From: Baekduia soli
GTDB taxonomy: Bacteria; Actinomycetota; Thermoleophilia; Solirubrobacterales; Solirubrobacteraceae
Direction of reading: 5' to 3'
DNA: 64,000 nt
Assembly: GCF_007970665.1 (NCBI RefSeq)
Contig: NZ_CP042430.1
Coordinates: 868,001-932,000 of the forward strand
The first letter of the stretch is position 1; each line of letters begins with the position of its first letter. This document shows positions 29,436 to 60,768 of the stretch, in pieces. Position numbers and translations under genes: made by a program. The notes beneath the pieces are model-generated. The model saw nothing but the letters and a program-made list of their open reading frames with translations. It was not told the DNA's origin and ran no database searches.

Positions 29436-29449
29436 TCGGGGTGCAGGAA

Positions 29450-29470
29450 GGAGCGACATGGAGTCGCTCC
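29450..29470 (+). promoter_or_regulatory. hairpin in the fliC leader with an ATG in its loop
   Basis: GGAGCGAC (29450-29457) pairs perfectly with GTCGCTCC (29463-29470). The loop ATGGA contains an ATG at 29458 that has its own strong GGAAGGAG. This ATG is out of frame with fliC. The hairpin would hide that decoy start while leaving the fliC ribosome binding site (AAGGAG, 29497-29502) open. A stability or translational-control element is inferred. Confidence 0.5.
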
Positions 29471-29509
29471 GGGACGAACACTCACACAACGTCATCAAGG
29501 AGATCGACG

Positions 29510-30310
29510 ATGTCCCTTCGTATCACGCAGAACGTGGAGGCCTTCAACGCCTACCGCCACCTGAACAACACCTCCGCCCAGGTCTCGAAGTCGATGGCGC
29601 GTCTGTCGTCGGGCTACCGGATCAACAGCGCGGCCGACGATGCGGCCGGGCTGGGCATCTCCGAGCAGATGCGCTCGCAGATCCGCGGTCTGGCCCAGGC
29701 GCAGCGCAACATCCAGGACGGCGTGTCCATGGTGCAGACCGCAGAGGGCAACCTCGACGAGGTCCACAGCATGCTGCAGCGCGTCCGTGAGCTGGCCGTG
29801 CAGTACAAGAACGGCACGCTCGACACCAACGCCAAGACGTCGATCGAGAACGAGGTCAACCAGCTGGCGTCCGAGATCAGCCGCATCGGCTCCTCGGCCC
29901 AGTTCAACGGCACCAACCTGCTGAGCGGCACCTCCACGGTGTCCTTCCAGGTCGGCGCCAACGACGGTCAGCAGATCGGTGTGACCCTGGTCAACCTGTC
30001 GACCGAGGTCGGCACCTCGTACTCCAACCTGGCCGGCGGTGCCACGATCTCCGACATCGACGCGGCGATCACCAACGTCAGCACGGCTCGCGCCAAGTTC
30101 GGCGCGGTCCAGAACCGGCTCGATCACTCGCTGGCCGTCGCGGGCTCCTACCAGGAGAACCTGACCGCGGCCGAGTCGCGGATCCGCGACGTCGACATGG
30201 CGGACGAGATGGTGTCGCTGACCAAGAACCAGATCCTCACGCAGGCCGGCACGGCCATGCTCTCGCAGGCCAACCAGGCCCCGCAGAGCGTGCTCCGCCT
30301 CCTGCAGTAA
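29510..30310 (+). CDS. fliC: flagellin
   Basis: 266 residues. Highly conserved D0/D1 N-terminus (RITQNVEAFNAYRHLNNTSA, then LSSGYRINSAADDAAGLGIS) and C-terminus (ESRIRDVDMADEMVSLTKNQ, ending QAPQSVLRLLQ) flank a short, Ser/Thr-rich variable part around residues 140-190. This is a minimal flagellin without large outer domains. An AAGGAG lies 7 bases before the ATG. The Ser/Thr-rich middle is where glycan attachment would be expected if the nearby glycosyltransferases act on it. Confidence 0.97.
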   Translation: MSLRITQNVEAFNAYRHLNNTSAQVSKSMARLSSGYRINSAADDAAGLGISEQMRSQIRGLAQAQRNIQDGVSMVQTAEGNLDEVHSMLQRVRELAVQYKNGTLDTNAKTSIENEVNQLASEISRIGSSAQFNGTNLLSGTSTVSFQVGANDGQQIGVTLVNLSTEVGTSYSNLAGGATISDIDAAITNVSTARAKFGAVQNRLDHSLAVAGSYQENLTAAESRIRDVDMADEMVSLTKNQILTQAGTAMLSQANQAPQSVLRLLQ

Positions 30311-45859: not shown

Positions 45860-46957
45860 GTGCCGGTCCCCCTGTTCGACACCGAGACGCCGCGCCTACC
45901 CCTGCGCGCGGATCTGCGCAGCGCCGTGCACCGCGTCCTCGACGCGGGCCGGTTCGTGCTGGGCCCCGAGGTCCAGGCCTTCGAGCGCGAGTGGGCCGCC
46001 TACCTCGGCGCCGCGCACGCGATCGGCGTGGCCAACGGCACCGAGGCCATCACGATCGCCCTGCGCGCGCTGGGCGTCGGCCCGGGCGACGAGGTCGTCG
46101 TGCCCTCCTTCACGTTCTGGGCCAGCGCCGAGGCGATCCCCCACACGGGCGCCACCCCGGTGTTCTGCGACATCGACCCCGAGACGTTCTGCGTCACGCC
46201 CGAGACCGTCAAGGCCGCGATGACGCCGCGGACGAAGGCCGTCATCGTCGTGCACCTGTTCGGCAACGTCGCGCCGGTGGCCGAGATCGAGGCGCTGGGC
46301 GTCCCGGTCCTGGAGGACGCCGCGCAGGCCGCGGGCTCCATCGGCCCCGCCGGGCGCCCGGGCGCCCTGGGCACCGTGGCGACGTTCTCGTTCTACCCCT
46401 CCAAGAACCTCGGGGCCTTCGGCGACGGCGGCGCGATCACCACGCGCGACGACGACGTCGCCCAGCGCGTGCGCACCCTGCGCTTCCACGGCTCGGCCGA
46501 CAAGAAGGACTACTCCATGGTCGGCTACAACAGCCGCCTGGACGAGCTGCAGGCCGCGATCCTGCGGGTCCAGCTGCCCGAGCTCGACCGCTGGGCGCAG
46601 GCCCGCGTCGAGGCGGGCGACCGCTACGAGCAGGCGCTGGACGGCCTGGTCGGCCTGCCGCGCGCGACCCCGGGCGCGCGTCCCGCGTGGCACCTCTACG
46701 TCGTCCGCCACCCCGACCCCGACGCGCTGCAGGCGGCGCTGACCGAGCGCGGCGTGGCCTGCGCGCCGTACTACCGGCGCCCGATCCACGAGCAGCCGCC
46801 CATGCGGTCCTATGCCCCGGCCCACGACCTGCCCGGGACCGCCGAGGCGGCCCGCACGCACCTGGCGATCCCCATGTCGGCGGCGCTGCGCGCCGAGCAG
46901 GTCGATGAGGTCGCGGCCGCCGTGCGCGATGCGGGTCTGGTTCGACCTCACCAATAG
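45860..46957 (+). CDS. DegT/DnrJ/EryC1/StrS family aminotransferase
   Basis: 365 residues from a GTG. PLP-binding Lys K182 (FYPSKNLGAFGDGGAI), with VANGTEAITIALRALGV, VVVPSFTFWASAEAI and VLEDAAQAAGSIGP as family motifs. It transfers an amino group to a keto-sugar nucleotide, possibly the product of RfbG or of the PglF-like dehydratase at 49019. It overlaps the next gene by 29 bases. Confidence 0.92.
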   Translation: MPVPLFDTETPRLPLRADLRSAVHRVLDAGRFVLGPEVQAFEREWAAYLGAAHAIGVANGTEAITIALRALGVGPGDEVVVPSFTFWASAEAIPHTGATPVFCDIDPETFCVTPETVKAAMTPRTKAVIVVHLFGNVAPVAEIEALGVPVLEDAAQAAGSIGPAGRPGALGTVATFSFYPSKNLGAFGDGGAITTRDDDVAQRVRTLRFHGSADKKDYSMVGYNSRLDELQAAILRVQLPELDRWAQARVEAGDRYEQALDGLVGLPRATPGARPAWHLYVVRHPDPDALQAALTERGVACAPYYRRPIHEQPPMRSYAPAHDLPGTAEAARTHLAIPMSAALRAEQVDEVAAAVRDAGLVRPHQ

Positions 46958-52097: not shown

Positions 52098-52847
52098 GTG
52101 GCCGGCTTCCTCGACCTTCCCGAGCGCAGCCCGAAGCCGCGCCAGCACGGACTGACCAACGTCCTGGACAAGGGCCTGTCGACCGCCGAGGTCGACGGCC
52201 TCATGGAGGTCGCGGGCGCCGCCGTGGACTTCGTCAAGCTCGGCTGGGGCACCGCGCTGGTCACGGGCAATCTGGACGCCAAGCTGGCCCGCTACCGCGC
52301 CCACGGGGTGCCGGTCGTCCTCGGCGGCACGCTCACGGAGATCGCGCTGCGCGACGGGCGCCTGGACGGCCTCGTCGCCTGGCTCAAGGAGCTGGGCCTG
52401 GGCCACGTCGAGGTCAGCGACGGCACGATCGAGCTCGAGCCGGAGCGCAAGCGCGAGATCATCGCCCGGCTGGCGCGTGACTTCACGGTGTTCTCCGAGG
52501 TCGGGTCCAAGGACGCCGAGCGGATCATGGCCCCCTACCGCTGGGTGCAGGACATCGAGGCCGAGCTGGCGGCCGGGGCCTGGAAGGTCATCGCCGAGGC
52601 GCGCGAGTCGGGCACCGCCGGCATCTTCCGCCCCGACGGCGAGGTGCGCATGGGCCTCATCGACGAGATCGTCCACGCCGTGGACCCCGCGCGGCTGGTC
52701 TTCGAGGCGCCCCAGAAGGTCCAGCAGGTGTGGTTCCTGCGCCGCTTCGGGCGCGAGGTCAACCTCGGCAACATCGCGCCGGCCGACGTCCTGTCGCTGG
52801 AGACCCTGCGCCTGGGCCTGCGCTCGGACACGATGGAGGACGCATGA
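52098..52847 (+). CDS. phosphosulfolactate synthase-like protein (ComA family)
   Basis: 249 residues from a GTG at 52098. ComA-type TIM-barrel features: GLTNVLDKGLSTAEVDGLME, VDFVKLGWGTALVTGNLDAK, VVLGGTLTEIALRDGRLDGL and VSDGTIELEPERKREII. In methanogens the enzyme adds sulfite to phosphoenolpyruvate for coenzyme M; bacterial homologues have been linked to sulfolactate. It overlaps the phosphatase gene by ATGA, so a sulfolactate pathway with that phosphatase is possible but unproven. Confidence 0.85.
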   Translation: MAGFLDLPERSPKPRQHGLTNVLDKGLSTAEVDGLMEVAGAAVDFVKLGWGTALVTGNLDAKLARYRAHGVPVVLGGTLTEIALRDGRLDGLVAWLKELGLGHVEVSDGTIELEPERKREIIARLARDFTVFSEVGSKDAERIMAPYRWVQDIEAELAAGAWKVIAEARESGTAGIFRPDGEVRMGLIDEIVHAVDPARLVFEAPQKVQQVWFLRRFGREVNLGNIAPADVLSLETLRLGLRSDTMEDA

Positions 52848-53380
52848 AGATCGCGCTGGCCCGGCACGGGGAGACGCCCTACAACGCCGAGCACCGCTTC
52901 CAGGGCCACCTCCCCGTGCCCCTGACCGAGCGCGGGCGCGAGCAGGCCCACGAGCTGGCCCGTGCGGCCGCCACGCGCGACTGGGGGGCGCTGTACTGCT
53001 CGCCCCTGGCCCGCGCCCGCGAGACGGCCGACATCGTCGCCGCGGCCATCGGGCACCACCCGATGGAGGACGCCCGCTTCGCCGAGACCGACTGCGGCGA
53101 CTGGACCGACCGGTTCTTCGCCGACGTCCAGGCCGCCGAGCCCGAGCTCTTCGCCGCCTACCAGCGCGCCGACCCGGCCTTCGCCTTCCCCGGCGGCGAG
53201 TCCTTCGCCGCCCAGCAGCTGCGCGTGCTCGAGGGCATCGACGCGGTGCGCCAGGGCCCGCTGCCGGCGCTCGTGGTCTGCCACCGCGGCTCGATCCGCC
53301 TGGCCCTGGCCGCGCTGCACGCCGACGACGCGCAGCGCACGGCCGAGGTCCCCAACGCGTCGCTGGTGGACCTGCCGTGA
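52844..53380 (+). CDS. histidine phosphatase family protein
   Basis: 178 residues from the ATG at 52844. RHG motif at the start (IALARHGETPYNAEHRFQGH), LYCSPLARARETADIVAAAI and the second His in VVCHRGSIRLALAALH. It may dephosphorylate phosphosulfolactate or another phospho-ester; its true substrate cannot be told. Coupled to genes on both sides by ATGA and GTGA overlaps. Confidence 0.9.
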   Translation: MKIALARHGETPYNAEHRFQGHLPVPLTERGREQAHELARAAATRDWGALYCSPLARARETADIVAAAIGHHPMEDARFAETDCGDWTDRFFADVQAAEPELFAAYQRADPAFAFPGGESFAAQQLRVLEGIDAVRQGPLPALVVCHRGSIRLALAALHADDAQRTAEVPNASLVDLP

Positions 53381-55257
53381 GCCCGGTCGGGGCCAGACCC
53401 CGGCCCACGACGGTCGTCGTCCTCTTCGGGATCCTCGTCGCCGCGACGTTCGCGGCGTTCTTCGTCGCCCAGCGGCTCAAGAACGCCCCGAGCGTGATCC
53501 AGTCGCTGCGCATCAACAGCGCCGGGCCCGGCAACGTGTTCTCGCCCAACGGCGACGGGCGGCGCGAGCGCGTGCGCATCGCGCTCAAGCTCAAGAAGGC
53601 CGACCGCGTCACGCTGGCGGTGCTCGACGCCCGGGGCGACGTCGTGCGCACGCTCGTCGACGACCGCCCGGTCAGGGCCTACGAGACGATCGGCCTGCCG
53701 GGCGTGCCGTGGGACGGCCGCGACGATGCCGGCCGCGTCGTCCCCGACGGGCGCTACCGGCTGCGGATCACGCTGCGCAACCAGGGCCGCTCGGTCGTCG
53801 TGCCGCGGTCGATCCTCAAGGACACCAAGCCGCCCACGCCGCTGGTCACCGCGATCGGTCCCGAGACCGCCTACGGCCCCGAGCTGCTGCCCGAGGCCGG
53901 CGACCGGCCCGCGCAGATCCACTTCGGCCCTGCGCTGGCCTTCGCGCGCCTGCACATCTTCCGCACCGCGCCGGGGACGATCCGCGTGGTGCGCACGGCC
54001 GACCTCAAGCCGGGCGCCCGCGAGTTCGACTGGGACGGCACCGACGACACCGGGCGCCGCGTGTCGCCCGGCACCTACCTCGCGGTGCCCGAGTGGCGCG
54101 ACGTGGCCGGCAACATCGGCACGTCGGTCCCGCTGGACAAGGCCGGCCTGCCCGTCCTGGGCCACGGGCGCCTGCGCGGCCGCGGCGGCATCACGGTCCG
54201 CTACCTCGGGGCCCGGCCGCCCGTGACGCCGGCGCTGGCGCGCGACCGGGTGACGATCGACGTCGACAGCCGGCGGCAGCGCTACACGTGGGAGGTCCGG
54301 CGCGTCGGCGGCACCGCCGTCAAGCGCTCGGGCGCGCCGAAGACCAGGCCGCGCGTCGTGTTCGCCGCCCCTGGGGGCACCTCGGGCGCCTACGTCTTCC
54401 AGGCGCGCACGCGGACGCACACGACGCGCGTGGTCTTCGCCGTGCAGGCCCGCCGCTCCGTCGCGGGCACCGCGGCCCGGCCGCGCGGCGTGCTCGTGGT
54501 GCTGCCCGTCATCACCTGGCAGGGCCTGAACCCCGTCGACGACGACGGCGACGGCGCGCCGAACACGCTGGCGCTCGGCGTGCCCTCGCGGCCGTTCCGC
54601 GTCATGGGCGGCGGCGGCCTGCCCGCCGGGTTCACCGACCGCGAGGCGCCCATCCTGCGCTGGCTGGACCGCACGGGGCGCCGCTACGACGTGACGACCG
54701 ACCTCGCGCTCATGCTCGGCCGCGGCCCGCGGCTGACGGGCCACCACGGCGTCCTCATCCCCGGTGACGCCCGTTGGCTGCCCAGCCGGGTGCGCACCAA
54801 CCTGCGCACGTTCGCGCGCGAGGGCGGCACCGTGGTCTCCGCGGGCATCGACAGCCTGCGCCGCACGGTGCGCATCGACGACAACGGCCGTCTGGCCGAC
54901 CCGTCGGCGGAGCGGGCCACCGACCTGTTCGGCGCGCGCCTGCGGCCGCTCGTGCAGCACACGAGCGACCTGGAGAACTTCCAGGACGACGCCGACGTCA
55001 GCCTGTTCTCCGGCGGCGACGGGCTGTTCGGCGCGGTGCCGTCCTGGGAGCCGACGATGAGCGCCGGCCCCGACGCCGACCTCGTGGCCCGTGCGGTCAC
55101 CGTCGACCCCGCCGGCTTCAACGTCATCGTCGCCGTGCGCTTCGGCAAGGGACTGGTCATCCGGCCCGGCTTCCCGGCCTTCGCCCCGCGCCTGTCCACC
55201 AACGACCCCGCCGTCACCGCGCTGATGGCCCGCATGTGGACGCTCCTGTCCCGCTGA
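53377..55257 (+). CDS. membrane-anchored protein with FlgD-type Ig domains
   Basis: 626 residues from a GTG at 53377 overlapping the phosphatase stop. One N-terminal membrane helix (TTVVVLFGILVAATFAAFFV) is followed by outside domains. FlgD-Ig-like signatures include NVFSPNGDGRRERVRIALKL and WDGRDDAGRVVPDGRYRLRI, with a second copy at FDWDGTDDTGRRVSPGTYLA. The last 230 residues form another domain (LVVLPVITWQGLNPVDDDGD, GGTVVSAGIDSLRRTVRI) that resembles beta-subunit-like cell-surface proteins. Possibly part of a wall or polysaccharide scaffold. Confidence 0.8.
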   Translation: MSPVGARPRPTTVVVLFGILVAATFAAFFVAQRLKNAPSVIQSLRINSAGPGNVFSPNGDGRRERVRIALKLKKADRVTLAVLDARGDVVRTLVDDRPVRAYETIGLPGVPWDGRDDAGRVVPDGRYRLRITLRNQGRSVVVPRSILKDTKPPTPLVTAIGPETAYGPELLPEAGDRPAQIHFGPALAFARLHIFRTAPGTIRVVRTADLKPGAREFDWDGTDDTGRRVSPGTYLAVPEWRDVAGNIGTSVPLDKAGLPVLGHGRLRGRGGITVRYLGARPPVTPALARDRVTIDVDSRRQRYTWEVRRVGGTAVKRSGAPKTRPRVVFAAPGGTSGAYVFQARTRTHTTRVVFAVQARRSVAGTAARPRGVLVVLPVITWQGLNPVDDDGDGAPNTLALGVPSRPFRVMGGGGLPAGFTDREAPILRWLDRTGRRYDVTTDLALMLGRGPRLTGHHGVLIPGDARWLPSRVRTNLRTFAREGGTVVSAGIDSLRRTVRIDDNGRLADPSAERATDLFGARLRPLVQHTSDLENFQDDADVSLFSGGDGLFGAVPSWEPTMSAGPDADLVARAVTVDPAGFNVIVAVRFGKGLVIRPGFPAFAPRLSTNDPAVTALMARMWTLLSR

Positions 55258-56708
55258 TCCTCTGCGCGCTGCTGGCCGCCGGCGCCGTGCTGCTGCCCGG
55301 GGTGCGACTGCGCGCGCTGGCGACCCTCGGCGCCCTGGTGCTCGCGCCCGTCCTGCTGGTGTCCGACATCTGGGACACCGACCAGGTGCGCCCGCTGCGC
55401 GACCACCCGTCCGTGGCCGTCGCGGGGGTGGCCGCCGGGGTCGTCGTGCTCGCGGCGCTGGCCGTGCTGTTCGCCCGCCGGCCCCCGGCGTTCCCGATCG
55501 CGGCCGCCGCGGCCATCCCGTTCCGCGTCCCGATCGCCTCGGGCGGCTCGACGGCCAACCTGCTCGTCCCGCTCTACGTCGTCGTCGGCGCCGGCGCCCT
55601 GGCCTACGCGGTGCCCCGGCTGCTGCCCGGCCGCGACGACGGGCGCGAGCGCGCGGCCGGCGCGATCGAGTGGCTGCTGGCGGTCTCCGTCGTCCTCTAC
55701 GCCGTGCAGTCCTCCTACTCCGACGACTTCGGCAAGGCCCTGGAGAACGTCGTGTTCTTCTACGTGCCGTTCGCGCTGCTCTTCGCGCTGGTGGCGCGCA
55801 TCGCGTGGACGCGGCGCCTGGCCGTGCAGGTCCTCGGCGTCCTCGCCGCGCTCGCGCTGGTCTTCGCGGCCGTCGGCTTCGTCGAGTACGCCACGCGCCA
55901 CCTGCTCCTGAACCCCAAGGTCATCGCGTCGAACCAGTTCGAGTCCTCGTTCCGCGTCAACTCGCTGTTCTTCGATCCCAACATCTACGGGCGCTTCCTG
56001 GCCGTCGTGATGATCGGCGTGGCCTCCGTGCTGCTGTGGGCGCGCCGCGGGCGCGACGTCTGGGGCGCCGCGGCCGTGCTCGCGGTCCTCTGGGCCGGGC
56101 TGCTGCTCACCTTGTCGCAGTCGAGCTTCGCGGCGCTCCTGCTCGGGCTCGTCGTCCTGGCCGGCGCGCGCTGGCGCCCGCGCTGGGCGGTGGCCACCGC
56201 GGTGGCCGCGCTCGTCGTCGGCGCCGTCTTCGTCGTCGCCGCGCCGTCGGCGCTGCACCTGAACCTCAACAATTCCAAGTCGGCCGACACCGCCACGAGC
56301 GGGCGCTACGACCTCGTCAAGGGCGGGCTGCGCCTGTTCATCGCCCGCCCGCTGCAGGGCCACGGGTCGGGCTCGTTCTCGCGCTCCTACCGCCGCGCCG
56401 AGAAGGGCTCGCAGGAGCGGGCGGTCTCCGCGTCGCACACCATCCCGATCACCGTGGCCGCCGAGCAGGGGATCGGCGGCCTGCTCGTCTACCTGGCGCT
56501 CCTGGCCGCCGCGGCGGTCATGCTGTTGCGCGGCGCCCGCGGCGATCCCGTCCGGGCGACGATCGCCGCCGCCTTCATCGCGCTCGTGCTGCACACCTGG
56601 AGCTACGCCTCGTTCCTGGAGGACCCCCTGACGTGGGCGCTGCTCGGCGTGGGCCTGGCGCTGGACGTCGCGCGGAGGGCCCGGGCCGCCGGCGTGGCGC
56701 CGTCGTGA
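55236..56708 (+). CDS. O-antigen ligase-like membrane protein
   Basis: 490 residues from a GTG at 55236, overlapping the previous gene by 22 bases. About ten to twelve membrane helices. The Wzy_C/O-antigen ligase-like extracytoplasmic loop has SFRVNSLFFDPNIYGRFLAV and TSGRYDLVKGGLRLFIARPL, then SASHTIPITVAAEQGIGGLL with the conserved His. It would polymerise or ligate the glycan made by this cluster. The start is uncertain because coding overlaps; the GTG is the only good choice before the first helix. Confidence 0.85.
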   Translation: MDAPVPLILCALLAAGAVLLPGVRLRALATLGALVLAPVLLVSDIWDTDQVRPLRDHPSVAVAGVAAGVVVLAALAVLFARRPPAFPIAAAAAIPFRVPIASGGSTANLLVPLYVVVGAGALAYAVPRLLPGRDDGRERAAGAIEWLLAVSVVLYAVQSSYSDDFGKALENVVFFYVPFALLFALVARIAWTRRLAVQVLGVLAALALVFAAVGFVEYATRHLLLNPKVIASNQFESSFRVNSLFFDPNIYGRFLAVVMIGVASVLLWARRGRDVWGAAAVLAVLWAGLLLTLSQSSFAALLLGLVVLAGARWRPRWAVATAVAALVVGAVFVVAAPSALHLNLNNSKSADTATSGRYDLVKGGLRLFIARPLQGHGSGSFSRSYRRAEKGSQERAVSASHTIPITVAAEQGIGGLLVYLALLAAAAVMLLRGARGDPVRATIAAAFIALVLHTWSYASFLEDPLTWALLGVGLALDVARRARAAGVAPS

Positions 56709-58074: not shown

Positions 58075-58220
58075 GCGGGCGGGAAGCCCTCGCGCTCGTG
58101 GAAGCGCAGCGCACGAGCGCCAGCAGCCGGGTGCCAGGTCGCCGCGCCGCGGCCGCGCCCACGTCCCCTCGTCGCCACGGACGGGGTCCTGCTCCGGCGC
58201 GACCTCGCCGAGCAGCTCAT
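58075..58220 (-). pseudogene. remnant of a GNAT-like acetyltransferase gene
   Basis: Behind the glycosyltransferase stop on the minus strand, an ATG at 58220 overlaps that stop (ATGA). Coding-like third positions run first in one frame and then in another (ALRFHEREGFPPAFLRL, which looks like the end of a GNAT domain). No frame holds a complete domain. I read it as a small decayed or miscalled gene; the identification is weak. Confidence 0.3.
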
Positions 58221-59272
58221 GACAGGCCCAGGGCCCACAGCCGCTCCCACAGCGGCCCGTTCTGGGCGCGGGCGGTCTGCTCCAGCGCCCAGATGCGCAG
58301 GGCCTCGTCGGGGTCGGTGCGCCGCCCGGCCTGCGCGGCCAGCGCGGCGGCGAACGCGTCCGCGCCGGCGGCGGTCGTCACGGCCCGCTCCCACGTGCGC
58401 ACGCCGGCCAGGTCCGGCGCGACGGTGCGCCGGCCCAGGCGCGCGTACTTCAGGATCCGGTAGGGCAGCCCGGCGTCGTTGAACGGCTCGACCTTGAAGG
58501 GCACGATCCCGACGTCGGCGCACAGGATGAGCCGGGCGGCCTCCTCGTCGGTACGCGGCCCGAGCCAGACGAACCCTGGGTGCGCGCGGCACCAGGCGTA
58601 GTCGGGGTCCTTGCGGCACTCGTCGTCGTGCCAGGCGCCGACGAGCAGCAGGACGAGGCCGGGCATCCGCTGGGCGACCTCGCGCAGCAGCGTCCAGTCC
58701 GTGCGCCACCCGAGGTGGCCCAGCGACACGGCGACGACCGCACCCGCCGGGTCCGGGGCCGGGAACGTGTCGGCCGACAGCGGCACGAGCGTCGCGCGGC
58801 GGCCCTCCTGCTCCTCGAGGCGGGCGAGCTCCTCGCTGGCCACGAACGTCAGCGACGACATGCGGGCGGCGGCGTCGTGCAGGACCTCCAGGCGCCGGCG
58901 CCGCGCCGGCCCGGCGTCGTAGGCGTGCTCGTAGCGGTCCCAGCGCCCGTACCAGAGCTCGCAGCCGGGGACGCGGCGCAGGATCGCGTGGCCGAGCAGG
59001 ATCTGGACCGGGTGGAAGATGACGACGACGCGCGGCCGGTCGCCGTTGCGCCGCAGCGCGCGCACGAGCCGCTTGGCCACGCCGTCGGCCAGCCGCTCGC
59101 CGACGCCGGGCGGCATCCGCACCAGCGCGCCGTAGGGGATGCGCGGCGGGTCGACCGCGACGACCTGCTGGGCCTGCATGAGGTCCTCGACCTGGTCGCG
59201 CAGGATGAACTGCTCGAGCTCACGGGGGAGGAGGAGCAGGCACAGGGGGCGCAGGTGGTCGTCGGCGTCCAC
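58217..59272 (-). CDS. glycosyltransferase, GT4-like
   Basis: 351 residues from a GTG at 59272. GT-B arrangement: the N-terminal half has RVVVIFHPVQILLGHAILR, and the C-terminal half has VSLGHLGWRTDWTLLREVAQ and GIVPFKVEPFNDAGLPYRIL, where the Glu and the GLP turn fit the acceptor-domain motif. Similar proteins transfer sugars to surface polysaccharides. A TACATT box lies eight bases before the start. Confidence 0.8.
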   Translation of the reverse strand: MDADDHLRPLCLLLLPRELEQFILRDQVEDLMQAQQVVAVDPPRIPYGALVRMPPGVGERLADGVAKRLVRALRRNGDRPRVVVIFHPVQILLGHAILRRVPGCELWYGRWDRYEHAYDAGPARRRRLEVLHDAAARMSSLTFVASEELARLEEQEGRRATLVPLSADTFPAPDPAGAVVAVSLGHLGWRTDWTLLREVAQRMPGLVLLLVGAWHDDECRKDPDYAWCRAHPGFVWLGPRTDEEAARLILCADVGIVPFKVEPFNDAGLPYRILKYARLGRRTVAPDLAGVRTWERAVTTAAGADAFAAALAAQAGRRTDPDEALRIWALEQTARAQNGPLWERLWALGLS

Positions 59273-59313: not shown

Positions 59314-60768
59314 ATGGCCGGCCTCCTCCGCCGACTGCTCGCCAGCACCGCGGCCTACCAGGCCCCCAGCATCCTCTCCAGCGTCCTGGCGCTGGTGACG
59401 ATCCGGCTGTACACGGGCCACCTGACCACGACGGACTACGGCTACGCCGAGAACCTGCTCACGGCGATCATCTTCACGAGCATCCTGCTGCGCTTCGGGA
59501 TCGGCGAGGCGTTCGTGCGCTTCTGGTTCGACGACGACGACCACGGGCGCCGCGTCGGTCTCGCGCGCACGACGACGGCGTGGGCGTTCTGGGCGGCGAC
59601 GGCCGTGGCGCTCGTGGGCCTGGCCCTGGCCGGGCCGCTGTCGCGGCTGATCCTCGACGTCGACGACGCCACGCTCATGGCCTGCGGGCTGCTCGGCCTG
59701 TGGGCGTTCACCAACCTCGAGGTGGCCTACGCGCTGCTGCGGGTCGAGGAGCGCCGGCGCGACTACGTCGTGGCCGGGCTGGCCAACGTCATGCTGACCG
59801 TCGTGCTGACGGTGGTGCTCGTCGTCGTGCTCGACGGCGGTGCGCGCGGCTACGTCCTGGGCAACTACGGCGCGTCGGCCGTCGTGCTCGTGGGCCTGTG
59901 GATCCGCCAGCGCGACCGCGTGTCGTTCCGGCCGCCGCGGGCCCTGGCGCCGCTGCTGCGCTTCGGCGGCCCGACCGTGCCGGCCGACGCGGCGGCCTTC
60001 GGCCTCAACGTCGTCGACCGGACCTACCTGCTGCACGCCGACTCCGCCGCGGCCGCCGGACGCTACGCGTTCGCCGCCAAGCTCTCGACCGTGGTCATCG
60101 TCGCGGTGCGCGGGTTCCAGGCCGCGTGGCCGCCGCTGGCCTACTCCGTCACCGACGAGGCCCAGGCCGCGCGCCTGTACGCGCGCGTCACGACGGCCTA
60201 TGTCGTCGTCACCGGCCTCGTCGTCGTCGGGGCGACGCTCACCGGCCGCTGGGTCGTGCGTGCGCTGGCCGCCCAGGCGTCCTACTACCCGGCCTCGCAG
60301 GCGCTGCCGTGGGTCGCCCTGGGGTGGGCGCTGTACGGCCTGGTGCTCGTGCTCGTCACCGTGGCCGGGCGGGCGAAGGTCACGACGCGCAACTTCCCCG
60401 CGACGGCGGCGGGCCTGATCGTCAACGTCGTGCTGCTCGTCGTGCTCGTCGGGCCGCTGGGCATCGCGGGCGCGGGCATCGCGCTGTGCGGGGCCTACGT
60501 GGTGATCATCGTCGTCCTGCACCTGCTGACCCGCCGCCTGTTCGTCGTCGGCTTCGAGCGCCGGCGGCTGGTCAGCGCGGTCGTGGTCATGGGGGCGGTG
60601 GCCGCCGGCGGCGACCTCCTGCTCCCGACCCACGGGGCGGCGGGCCTGGCCGAGCGCCTCGCGCTGCTGGCCGTCACCCCGCTGCTGCTGCTCGCCGCGC
60701 GCGTGGTCACCCTGGGGGAGCTGCGGGCGCTGGCGGCGCTGCGGCGCGCGGCGCCGGCGGGGCTGTAG
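59314..60768 (+). CDS. Wzx-type polysaccharide flippase
   Basis: 484 residues, hydrophobic, about twelve to fourteen helices. Polysaccharide-biosynthesis/MATE-like features: STAAYQAPSILSSVLALVTI, ADAAAFGLNVVDRTYLLHAD and AGRYAFAAKLSTVVIVAVRG. It flips lipid-linked oligosaccharide across the membrane. It works with the O-antigen-ligase-like protein and the GT-C enzyme nearby. Confidence 0.9.
   Translation: MAGLLRRLLASTAAYQAPSILSSVLALVTIRLYTGHLTTTDYGYAENLLTAIIFTSILLRFGIGEAFVRFWFDDDDHGRRVGLARTTTAWAFWAATAVALVGLALAGPLSRLILDVDDATLMACGLLGLWAFTNLEVAYALLRVEERRRDYVVAGLANVMLTVVLTVVLVVVLDGGARGYVLGNYGASAVVLVGLWIRQRDRVSFRPPRALAPLLRFGGPTVPADAAAFGLNVVDRTYLLHADSAAAAGRYAFAAKLSTVVIVAVRGFQAAWPPLAYSVTDEAQAARLYARVTTAYVVVTGLVVVGATLTGRWVVRALAAQASYYPASQALPWVALGWALYGLVLVLVTVAGRAKVTTRNFPATAAGLIVNVVLLVVLVGPLGIAGAGIALCGAYVVIIVVLHLLTRRLFVVGFERRRLVSAVVVMGAVAAGGDLLLPTHGAAGLAERLALLAVTPLLLLAARVVTLGELRALAALRRAAPAGL

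What the first reader, a model, noticed from the sequence alone, without database searches (positions are those of the whole stretch)
52098..53380. Phosphosulfolactate synthase-like gene coupled to a phosphatase in a glycan cluster
ComA-type enzymes make phosphosulfolactate from PEP and sulfite; a phosphatase would give sulfolactate. ATGA coupling to a histidine phosphatase (not the usual ComB type) is suggestive. Sulfolactate or a sulfonated group could end up on the surface glycan.
Basis: inference. Interest (0 to 1): 0.5.

Follow-up and report, generated by a model that had tools for sequence, protein, structure and literature searches.

The report
Sulfonate-making enzyme in surface-glycan operon
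An actinobacterium carries a well-preserved enzyme of the kind that turns sulfite into an organic sulfonate, placed inside an operon for building its surface sugars, which hints that the cell coat may carry a sulfonate; the phosphatase gene beside it, however, is not a dedicated partner.

Summary
52098-52847 encodes a ComA-family protein (PF02679, 288 bits; model TM 0.95 to B. subtilis PSL synthase). 52844-53380, overlapping by ATGA, encodes a histidine phosphatase (HP), not ComB. Family-invariant Lys and Glu residues are present; no His is conserved family-wide. The genome has no PF04029 (ComB) and no PF02615 (ComC-type) gene, so archaeal-type CoM synthesis is unlikely.

New: in 26 of the 35 ComA-positive relatives ComA sits in one glycan operon (LytR_C - ComA - HP - FlgD_ig protein - Wzy). 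In sister families ComA lies beside CysH, APS-kinase and TauE genes, often with the same glycan genes nearby. This supports sulfite as substrate.

HP stands in the same place in 25 of 40 loci without ComA and is missing in 6 of 26 with it. Where HP is missing, an in-frame start lets ComA overlap the FlgD_ig gene instead (14 of 15).

Best reading: a real PSL synthase supplying (phospho)sulfolactate to the envelope glycan. Enzyme identity is likely, the glycan destination is inferred, and HP as PSL phosphatase is possible but unproven.

The parts
45860..46957 (+). DegT/DnrJ/EryC1/StrS aminotransferase
   Evidence: PF01041 366.8 bits
46896..47954 (+). DUF354 protein (start uncertain)
   Evidence: PF04007 165.2 bits
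47967..48953 (-). Gfo/Idh/MocA oxidoreductase
   Evidence: PF01408 58.6 bits
49019..50977 (+). CapD-like nucleotide-sugar dehydratase
   Evidence: PF02719 363.7 bits
50979..52082 (+). Protein with C-terminal LytR_C domain
   Evidence: PF13399 41.8 bits
52098..52847 (+). ComA-family protein, phosphosulfolactate synthase-like
   Evidence: PF02679 288.3 bits; PDB 1u83 and 1qwg; conserved residues
52844..53380 (+). Histidine phosphatase, branch 1 (HP)
   Evidence: PF00300 151.9 bits; ATGA overlap
53377..55257 (+). Predicted membrane-anchored protein with FlgD_ig and DMFA2_C-like domains (called FlgIg here)
   Evidence: PF13860 57.2 and PF20254 41.7 bits; model pLDDT 89.5 with an N-terminal helix 10-36
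55242..56708 (+). Wzy_C / O-antigen ligase-like protein (start uncertain)
   Evidence: PF04932 64.2 bits
56692..58063 (+). Hydrophobic protein, PMT-like by eye only (start uncertain)
   Evidence: ORF; no Pfam match
58217..59272 (-). Glycosyltransferase-like protein (match below cut-off)
   Evidence: PF13692 22.8 bits, cut-off 27
59314..60768 (+). Flippase-like polysaccharide protein
   Evidence: PF01943 33.4 bits
60812..61720 (-). GT2 glycosyltransferase
   Evidence: PF00535 49 bits

Best explanation
The 52098 gene encodes a working member of the phosphosulfolactate (PSL) synthase family: sulfite adds to C3 of PEP to give (2R)-phospho-3-sulfolactate. Its product is used by the surface-glycan operon in which it sits, most likely as sulfolactate or phosphosulfolactate put on a sugar or carrier of that glycan. 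HP is a core gene of the operon with a role that does not need ComA; it may also dephosphorylate PSL, but it is not a dedicated partner. Shown: family, fold, conserved residues, operon, recurrence, absence of PF04029 and PF02615 in this genome. Inferred: activity, use of sulfite, glycan destination, any HP action on PSL.
For: ComA identity: PF02679 288.3 bits over the full profile; model pLDDT 91.9, TM 0.95 to 1u83 and 0.90 to 1qwg by target length; 68 residues identical in the M. jannaschii, B. subtilis and window proteins, of which D24, D44, K62, E81, E105, E134, K138, E167, R169, Q210, N225, E235, R238 and R242 are invariant in 98 of 98 family rows. Locus: 26 of 35 ComA-positive relatives and 19 of 20 further f1/f2 genomes fetched, out of 33. 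Overlap of ComA with the next gene: HP 18 of 20 and FlgIg 6 of 6; HP 3 of 10 and FlgIg 8 of 9 in the second set. The ComA tree follows the families, with the f1 locus genes as one group, support 94. Sulfite: CysH directly after ComA in 5 of 8 f7/f11 loci, with APS kinase and TauE; 6 of those 8 also show FlgIg-like and Wzy matches. No PF04029 and no PF02615 in this genome.
Against: No gene in the fetched stretches is clearly restricted to ComA-positive loci apart from ComA, so no transferase that would attach a sulfonate is seen (best other family 6 of 38 against 0 of 40). The operon exists without ComA in many relatives, so ComA is dispensable for it. In the window, sulfate-assimilation genes are far away (PF01507 matches at 233.6-235.9 kb, window at 868-932 kb). 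The score on the archaeal equivalog model TIGR03849 is below its cut-off (245 against 280). ComA's place could be a relic of an older shared region. No chemistry was measured.
Confidence: 0.5

Rival explanations
1. ComA and HP form a dedicated two-step module: HP replaces ComB and hydrolyses PSL to sulfolactate.
For: HP follows ComA in 20 of 26 relatives. In another family, f6, HP follows ComA in 9 of 10 longer loci, and in the tenth it follows the second ComA copy. ComB is absent in all 26 relatives with ComA in the locus and present in 7 of 8 with ComA elsewhere. By family ComB goes with ComA in f7 75 of 87, f10 10 of 11, f11 4 of 5, but in f6 3 of 12 and f2 0 of 8. In Oceanibacterium (L104) ComA, a glyoxalase-like gene, an HP and an ATP-grasp gene stand in a row.
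Against: HP stands in the same place in 25 of 40 loci without ComA and keeps its catalytic residues there. ComA and HP presence are not associated (Fisher p 0.58) and independent pairs show no link. 15 examined genomes have ComA followed by FlgIg without HP, 12 of them also without ComB; family f5 has 33 ComA genomes and no ComB, with no HP next to ComA in the 12 loci examined with a GH-like gene. Seven of the 19 further locus genomes do have ComB, four of them with HP too; I fetched those seven on purpose.
Confidence: 0.3
2. ComA makes free sulfolactate as a pool (solute, sulfite sink or sulfur store, as in B. subtilis spores) and its place in the glycan operon is a relic of an older region in which sulfur and glycan genes were neighbours.
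For: In f7/f11 ComA lies inside a CysH - APS kinase - TauE block next to glycan genes. In B. subtilis yitCD and yitBA-yisZ, inferred to make phosphosulfolactate, go with sulfolactate at about 5% of spore dry weight (PMC517825, passages read).
Against: In f1/f2 the sulfur genes are not beside ComA, yet ComA stayed in the glycan operon with overlapping starts across two families.
Confidence: 0.3
3. Coenzyme M synthesis.
For: ComA is the first enzyme of both known CoM routes (PMC8727900 and PMC11507031, passages read).
Against: No PF04029 and no PF02615 in the genome; no argininosuccinate-lyase-like gene among the 20 window proteins of 37-64 kb scanned. A lyase of that kind elsewhere in the genome was not searched for.
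Confidence: 0.04
4. ComA has changed substrate and adds another nucleophile to PEP, for example a glycan-related one.
For: The setting is glycan, not sulfur; a sister group (f2 locus plus f1 ATP-grasp type) has changed otherwise fixed residues (S137E, E170A).
Against: The window protein keeps the residues shared by the M. jannaschii and B. subtilis enzymes at those places, and CysH is next to ComA in f7/f11.
Confidence: 0.1

Closest known systems
Phosphosulfolactate synthase ComA / YitD (PF02679; PDB 1qwg, 1u83)
   Same: Full-length domain, fold, 68 shared residues
   Different: No ComB or PF02615 gene in the genome; lies in a glycan operon; 245 bits on TIGR03849, cut-off 280
B. subtilis yitCD / yitBA-yisZ sulfolactate genes (PMC517825, passages)
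   Same: Same first enzyme; sister families f7/f11 pair ComA with CysH and APS kinase, which I recall to be the yitBA-yisZ arrangement
   Different: The window has neither ComB nor sulfur genes beside ComA
Bacterial CoM cluster xcbB1-E1 (PMC8727900, PMC11507031, passages)
   Same: xcbB1 is a ComA homologue
   Different: No lyase-type partner in the window; the Myxococcota-type loci L110 and L111 do have a ComA with an argininosuccinate-lyase-like gene
Wzy-type surface polysaccharide loci
   Same: CapD-like, DegT, Wzy_C, flippase and glycosyltransferase genes
   Different: Contains a PSL synthase-like gene; I know of no such locus with a proven sulfolactate (recalled; searches)

Membership tests
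ComA / PSL synthase (PF02679) | Full-length domain over the curated cut-off | tested here: met
   288.3 bits against 25.2
ComA / PSL synthase (PF02679) | Fold of solved PSL synthases | tested here: met
   Model pLDDT 91.9; TM 0.95 (1u83) and 0.90 (1qwg) by target length
ComA / PSL synthase (PF02679) | Conserved Lys and acidic residues | tested here: met
   K138 (M. jannaschii K137, catalytic role recalled), K62, E81, E105, E134, E167, E235 present and invariant in 98 rows
ComA / PSL synthase (PF02679) | PEP- and sulfite-dependent activity | not testable with these tools
   Needs an enzyme assay
Archaeal ComA equivalog TIGR03849 | Score over the equivalog cut-off | tested here: not met
   245 against 280
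CoM biosynthesis, archaeal route | ComB (PF04029) and ComC (PF02615) in the genome | tested here: not met
   Neither found; controls positive in M. jannaschii
CoM biosynthesis, bacterial route | Argininosuccinate-lyase-like XcbC1 beside ComA | tested here: not met
   None among the 20 window proteins scanned at 37-64 kb; rest of the genome not searched
Dedicated ComA-HP module | The two genes are gained and lost together | tested here: not met
   HP without ComA in 25 of 40 loci, ComA without HP in 6 of 26; Fisher p 0.58
ComB phosphatase | HP belongs to PF04029 | tested here: not met
   Only PF00300 matched
Wzy-type surface polysaccharide locus | Polymerase/ligase, flippase, glycosyltransferases, sugar-nucleotide enzymes together | tested here: met
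Sulfonated surface glycan | Sulfonate bound in the polysaccharide | not testable with these tools
   Needs chemistry

The most novel reading that the evidence does not exclude
Thermoleophilia build a surface polysaccharide that carries sulfolactate or phosphosulfolactate, made by a PSL synthase kept in the glycan operon; in sister families the same region brings its own sulfite supply (CysH, APS kinase). It would be a biosynthetic route to a sulfonated cell-surface glycan that does not use sulfotransferases.
Probability: 0.35. Interest if true: 0.7.

Novelty: new variant of a known kind. Interest (0 to 1): 0.5.

Why it matters
ComA is known from coenzyme M synthesis and from sulfolactate in B. 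subtilis spores. If ComA feeds a surface glycan across a class of common soil actinobacteria, this would name a new fate for sulfolactate, a likely source of this abundant soil sulfonate, and a route to strongly acidic cell coats. It also gives a ready genetic test, because natural relatives have the same operon with and without ComA.

Tried and rejected
Rejected: HP as a dedicated ComA partner. Rejected as likely: CoM synthesis. My own first reading, was that HP replaces ComB because ComB was absent from all 26 locus genomes; weakened it (HP without ComA; locus genomes with ComB; f5 with neither), so it stands as a rival only.

Led nowhere: a search for a gene restricted to ComA-positive loci; Rfam and tRNA scans of the window (nothing); papers on the ComA active site (not held; one search found none in its ten listed papers); papers joining sulfolactate with glycans or Thermoleophilia (listings only, nothing to the point among the papers listed); FlgIg fold search (best hits are amidohydrolase-type proteins with TM about 0.4, no function follows). 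For ComA in Bacteroidota the neighbours are a TPR protein, a DUF368-like, an AroE-like and a UvrB-like protein, named by eye, with no glycan link.

Limits: my ORF caller is crude. Gene maps rest on my own HMMs, and the HP model was built from ComA-positive loci, so it favours those. The Fisher test counted L033 as ComA-negative because its contig ends before FlgIg; its true state is ComA and HP present, which does not change the conclusion. The 4-bp overlap test asks only for an in-frame start at the stop, not that it is used. Many relatives are draft genomes, so absences there are weaker. The 20 genomes are 20 of 33 further f1/f2 ComA genomes and were chosen to include seven with ComB.

Full report
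What is there. The window is 64 kb of a 5.2-Mb single-contig genome. The ORF at 52098-52847 is a full-length ComA-family protein (PF02679, 288.3 bits, cut-off 25.2) and the ORF at 52844-53380 a branch-1 histidine phosphatase (PF00300, 151.9 bits). The start of the second overlaps the stop of the first as ATGA, and the second in turn overlaps a third gene, 53377-55257, as GTGA. This third gene, called FlgIg here, has FlgD_ig and DMFA2_C-like domains. Around them are DegT, DUF354, Gfo, CapD-like, LytR_C, Wzy_C, flippase, glycosyltransferase and UDP-galactopyranose mutase genes.

Is it a PSL synthase? By sequence the solved structures closest to it are B. subtilis PSL synthase (1u83, E 2.6e-51) and M. 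jannaschii PSL synthase (1qwg, E 7.6e-45). An AlphaFold2 model (pLDDT 91.9) matches 1u83 with TM 0.95 and 1qwg with TM 0.90 by target length. Sixty-eight residues are identical in the M. jannaschii, B. subtilis and window proteins; 14 polar ones (D24, D44, K62, E81, E105, E134, K138, E167, R169, Q210, N225, E235, R238, R242) are invariant in all 98 rows of my family alignment. K138 is M. jannaschii K137 by the alignment; that K137 is catalytic is recalled, and the structure paper was not held. No His is among the 68. The score on the archaeal equivalog model is below its cut-off (245 against 280), as a bacterial member may well be. Activity is not shown.

Not coenzyme M by the archaeal route. 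This genome has no PF04029 (ComB) match and no PF02615 (the family of ComC) match, while the controls include M. jannaschii as positive. Two PF01507 matches (the family holds CysH and CysD) lie at 233.6-235.9 kb, far from the window at 868-932 kb, so sulfite can be made, but not by genes next door.

The operon recurs. PF02679 was found in 35 of 101 relatives. In 26 of them, the window's genome included, ComA stands in the same gene set: LytR_C upstream, HP and/or FlgIg downstream, then Wzy; some contigs end inside the set, and L045 has HP and Wzy but no detected FlgIg. Of the other nine, seven have ComA followed by an ATP-grasp gene, one (G007) has ComA-ComB-ATP-grasp, and one (G051) is a match below the cut-off that I did not examine. 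I then fetched 20 of 33 further ComA-positive genomes of the two families f1 and f2: 19 have LytR_C, then ComA, then HP or FlgIg; in the twentieth (L257) my stricter model found no ComA. The ComA tree groups the f1 locus genes together (support 94), with f2 and the ATP-grasp type beside them (support 80), and f6 (99) and Bacteroidota (96) apart. The best named relatives are Solirubrobacteraceae, Conexibacter and other Thermoleophilia metagenome assemblies.

The phosphatase is not ComA's own. I fetched 40 FlgIg loci from relatives without ComA in that place, seven of which have ComA elsewhere. HP is present between LytR_C and FlgIg in 25 of the 40. Among 59 loci that my script counted as resolved the table was ComA+HP+ 16, ComA+HP- 6, ComA-HP+ 24, ComA-HP- 13; Fisher p 0.58 (L033 is misfiled there as neither, because its contig ends early). 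Independent pairs on the locus tree gave no link either. HP keeps R57, E81, H147 and R152 in 25 of 25 ComA-less loci, and R7 and H8 in the 23 that show them. Position E10 is E in 18 of 19 ComA-positive HPs but E in 13, Q in 6 and R in 4 of the ComA-less ones, so some drift without ComA is possible.

The overlap belongs to the operon. A start codon overlapping the ComA stop by 4 bp opens the next gene in 18 of 20 ComA-HP pairs and in 6 of 6 ComA-FlgIg pairs where HP is missing; HP-FlgIg overlaps 16 of 18 times with ComA and 21 of 25 times without it; LytR_C-ComA 0 of 22. In the further set it is 3 of 10 for ComA-HP and 8 of 9 for ComA-FlgIg. ComA is thus tied to FlgIg at least as tightly as to HP.

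Other families of the class. PF02679 occurs in 212 of 399 genomes of the class. In f7/f11, CysH follows ComA in 5 of 8 loci, with APS kinase (PF01583, 142.3 bits) and TauE (PF01925, 136.8 bits) nearby; FlgIg-like and Wzy matches lie downstream in 6 of the 8, and DegT, CapD or DUF354 matches upstream in 3 of the 8. The CysH protein of L096 scores 243 bits on the phosphoadenylyl-sulfate reductase model NF002537, cut-off 154. In f6, HP follows ComA in 9 of 10 longer loci, and in the tenth it follows the second ComA copy; DegT and DUF354 lie upstream in 5 of the 10 and a flippase-like gene downstream in 7. In f5, ComA lies between a FAD protein of the NadB/FrdA kind (below cut-offs) and a glycosyl-hydrolase-like gene. 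So in several families ComA is found near glycan genes, and in f7/f11 with a sulfite supply. This is the main support for sulfite as substrate and for the glycan reading, though a shared old chromosomal region could give the same picture.

ComB. By family, ComB is present in f7 75 of 87, f10 10 of 11, f11 4 of 5, f6 3 of 12, f5 0 of 33, f2 0 of 8 and f1 15 of 56 ComA genomes. By what follows ComA in the 92 genomes examined, ComB is present with HP in 6 of 38, FlgIg 3 of 15, ATP-grasp 6 of 7, CysH 5 of 5, FAD protein 3 of 4, GH-like 0 of 12, other 3 of 7, unresolved 0 of 4. HP and ComB tend to avoid each other, but families confound this, and many ComA genomes have neither. HP as a PSL phosphatase is therefore a rival, not the conclusion.

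Literature. In B. [quoted passage not shown] In the bacterial CoM route the ComA homologue XcbB1 is followed by a lyase that removes phosphate (PMC8727900, PMC11507031, passages). A ComA homologue in C. glutamicum, cg2797, is raised at acid pH (PMC2627906, passages). Eight library searches listed no paper that by title or abstract start deals with ComA in a glycan locus or a sulfolactate-bearing bacterial glycan; subscription papers are mostly not held.

Verdict. How sulfolactate would be attached is unknown: no gene in the stretches fetched marks the ComA-positive loci apart from ComA.

Noticed in passing
window 205-29150 and 29441-30310: A run of genes that reads as a flagellar cluster followed by a flagellin-like gene lies upstream of the glycan region (named by eye from translations); a link between flagellin and the glycan was not tested.
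   Followed up: no
L050, L053, L054, L058, L059 and L055-L057, L060-L063 (ComA genes): One ComA subgroup (f2 locus plus f1 ATP-grasp type, 12 rows, support 100) has E at position 137 and A at 170 in all 12 rows, where the other groups have S (one N) and E; its substrate may differ.
   Followed up: partly
L226-L229, L231, L232, L234, L235: FAD protein of the NadB/fumarate-reductase kind, then a class I fumarase alpha gene, then ComA, mostly then CysH. Since sulfolactate is a sulfonate analogue of malate, a sulfo-version of malate to fumarate to succinate is conceivable.
   Followed up: partly
L055-L057, L060-L063, L064: ComA directly followed by an ATP-grasp gene (7 loci), and ComA-ComB-ATP-grasp in L064: perhaps sulfolactate is ligated to an amine.
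   Followed up: partly
L104:2359-11803: Oceanibacterium hippocampi (Alphaproteobacteria): polysaccharide flippase, glutamine amidotransferase-type protein, ComA, glyoxalase, HP, ATP-grasp, a separate case of ComA and HP in a polysaccharide setting.
   Followed up: partly
L107, L110, L111: ComA with an argininosuccinate-lyase-like gene upstream (PF00206 in L111), as in the bacterial CoM route; a further upstream protein that I took for ATP-grasp has no Pfam match.
   Followed up: partly
L049:9937-12233 and L052:9405-11881: A divergent second ComA-type protein beside a MmgE/PrpD protein (PF03972 in L049).
   Followed up: no
L081, L083: Records titled Bifidobacterium breve MAG carry ComA genes that fall inside the Thermoleophilia group (L083 identical to an f5 genome's), so the titles look wrong.
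   Followed up: no
window 53377-55257: FlgIg is a confident model (pLDDT 89.5) with weak overall likeness (TM about 0.4) to N-acyl amino acid acylase and dimethylformamidase; PF13860/FlgIg-type matches occur in 96 of 101 relatives, many of them short.
   Followed up: partly
L223: G107 carries two ComA genes 2.7 kb apart; only the second is followed by HP.
   Followed up: no
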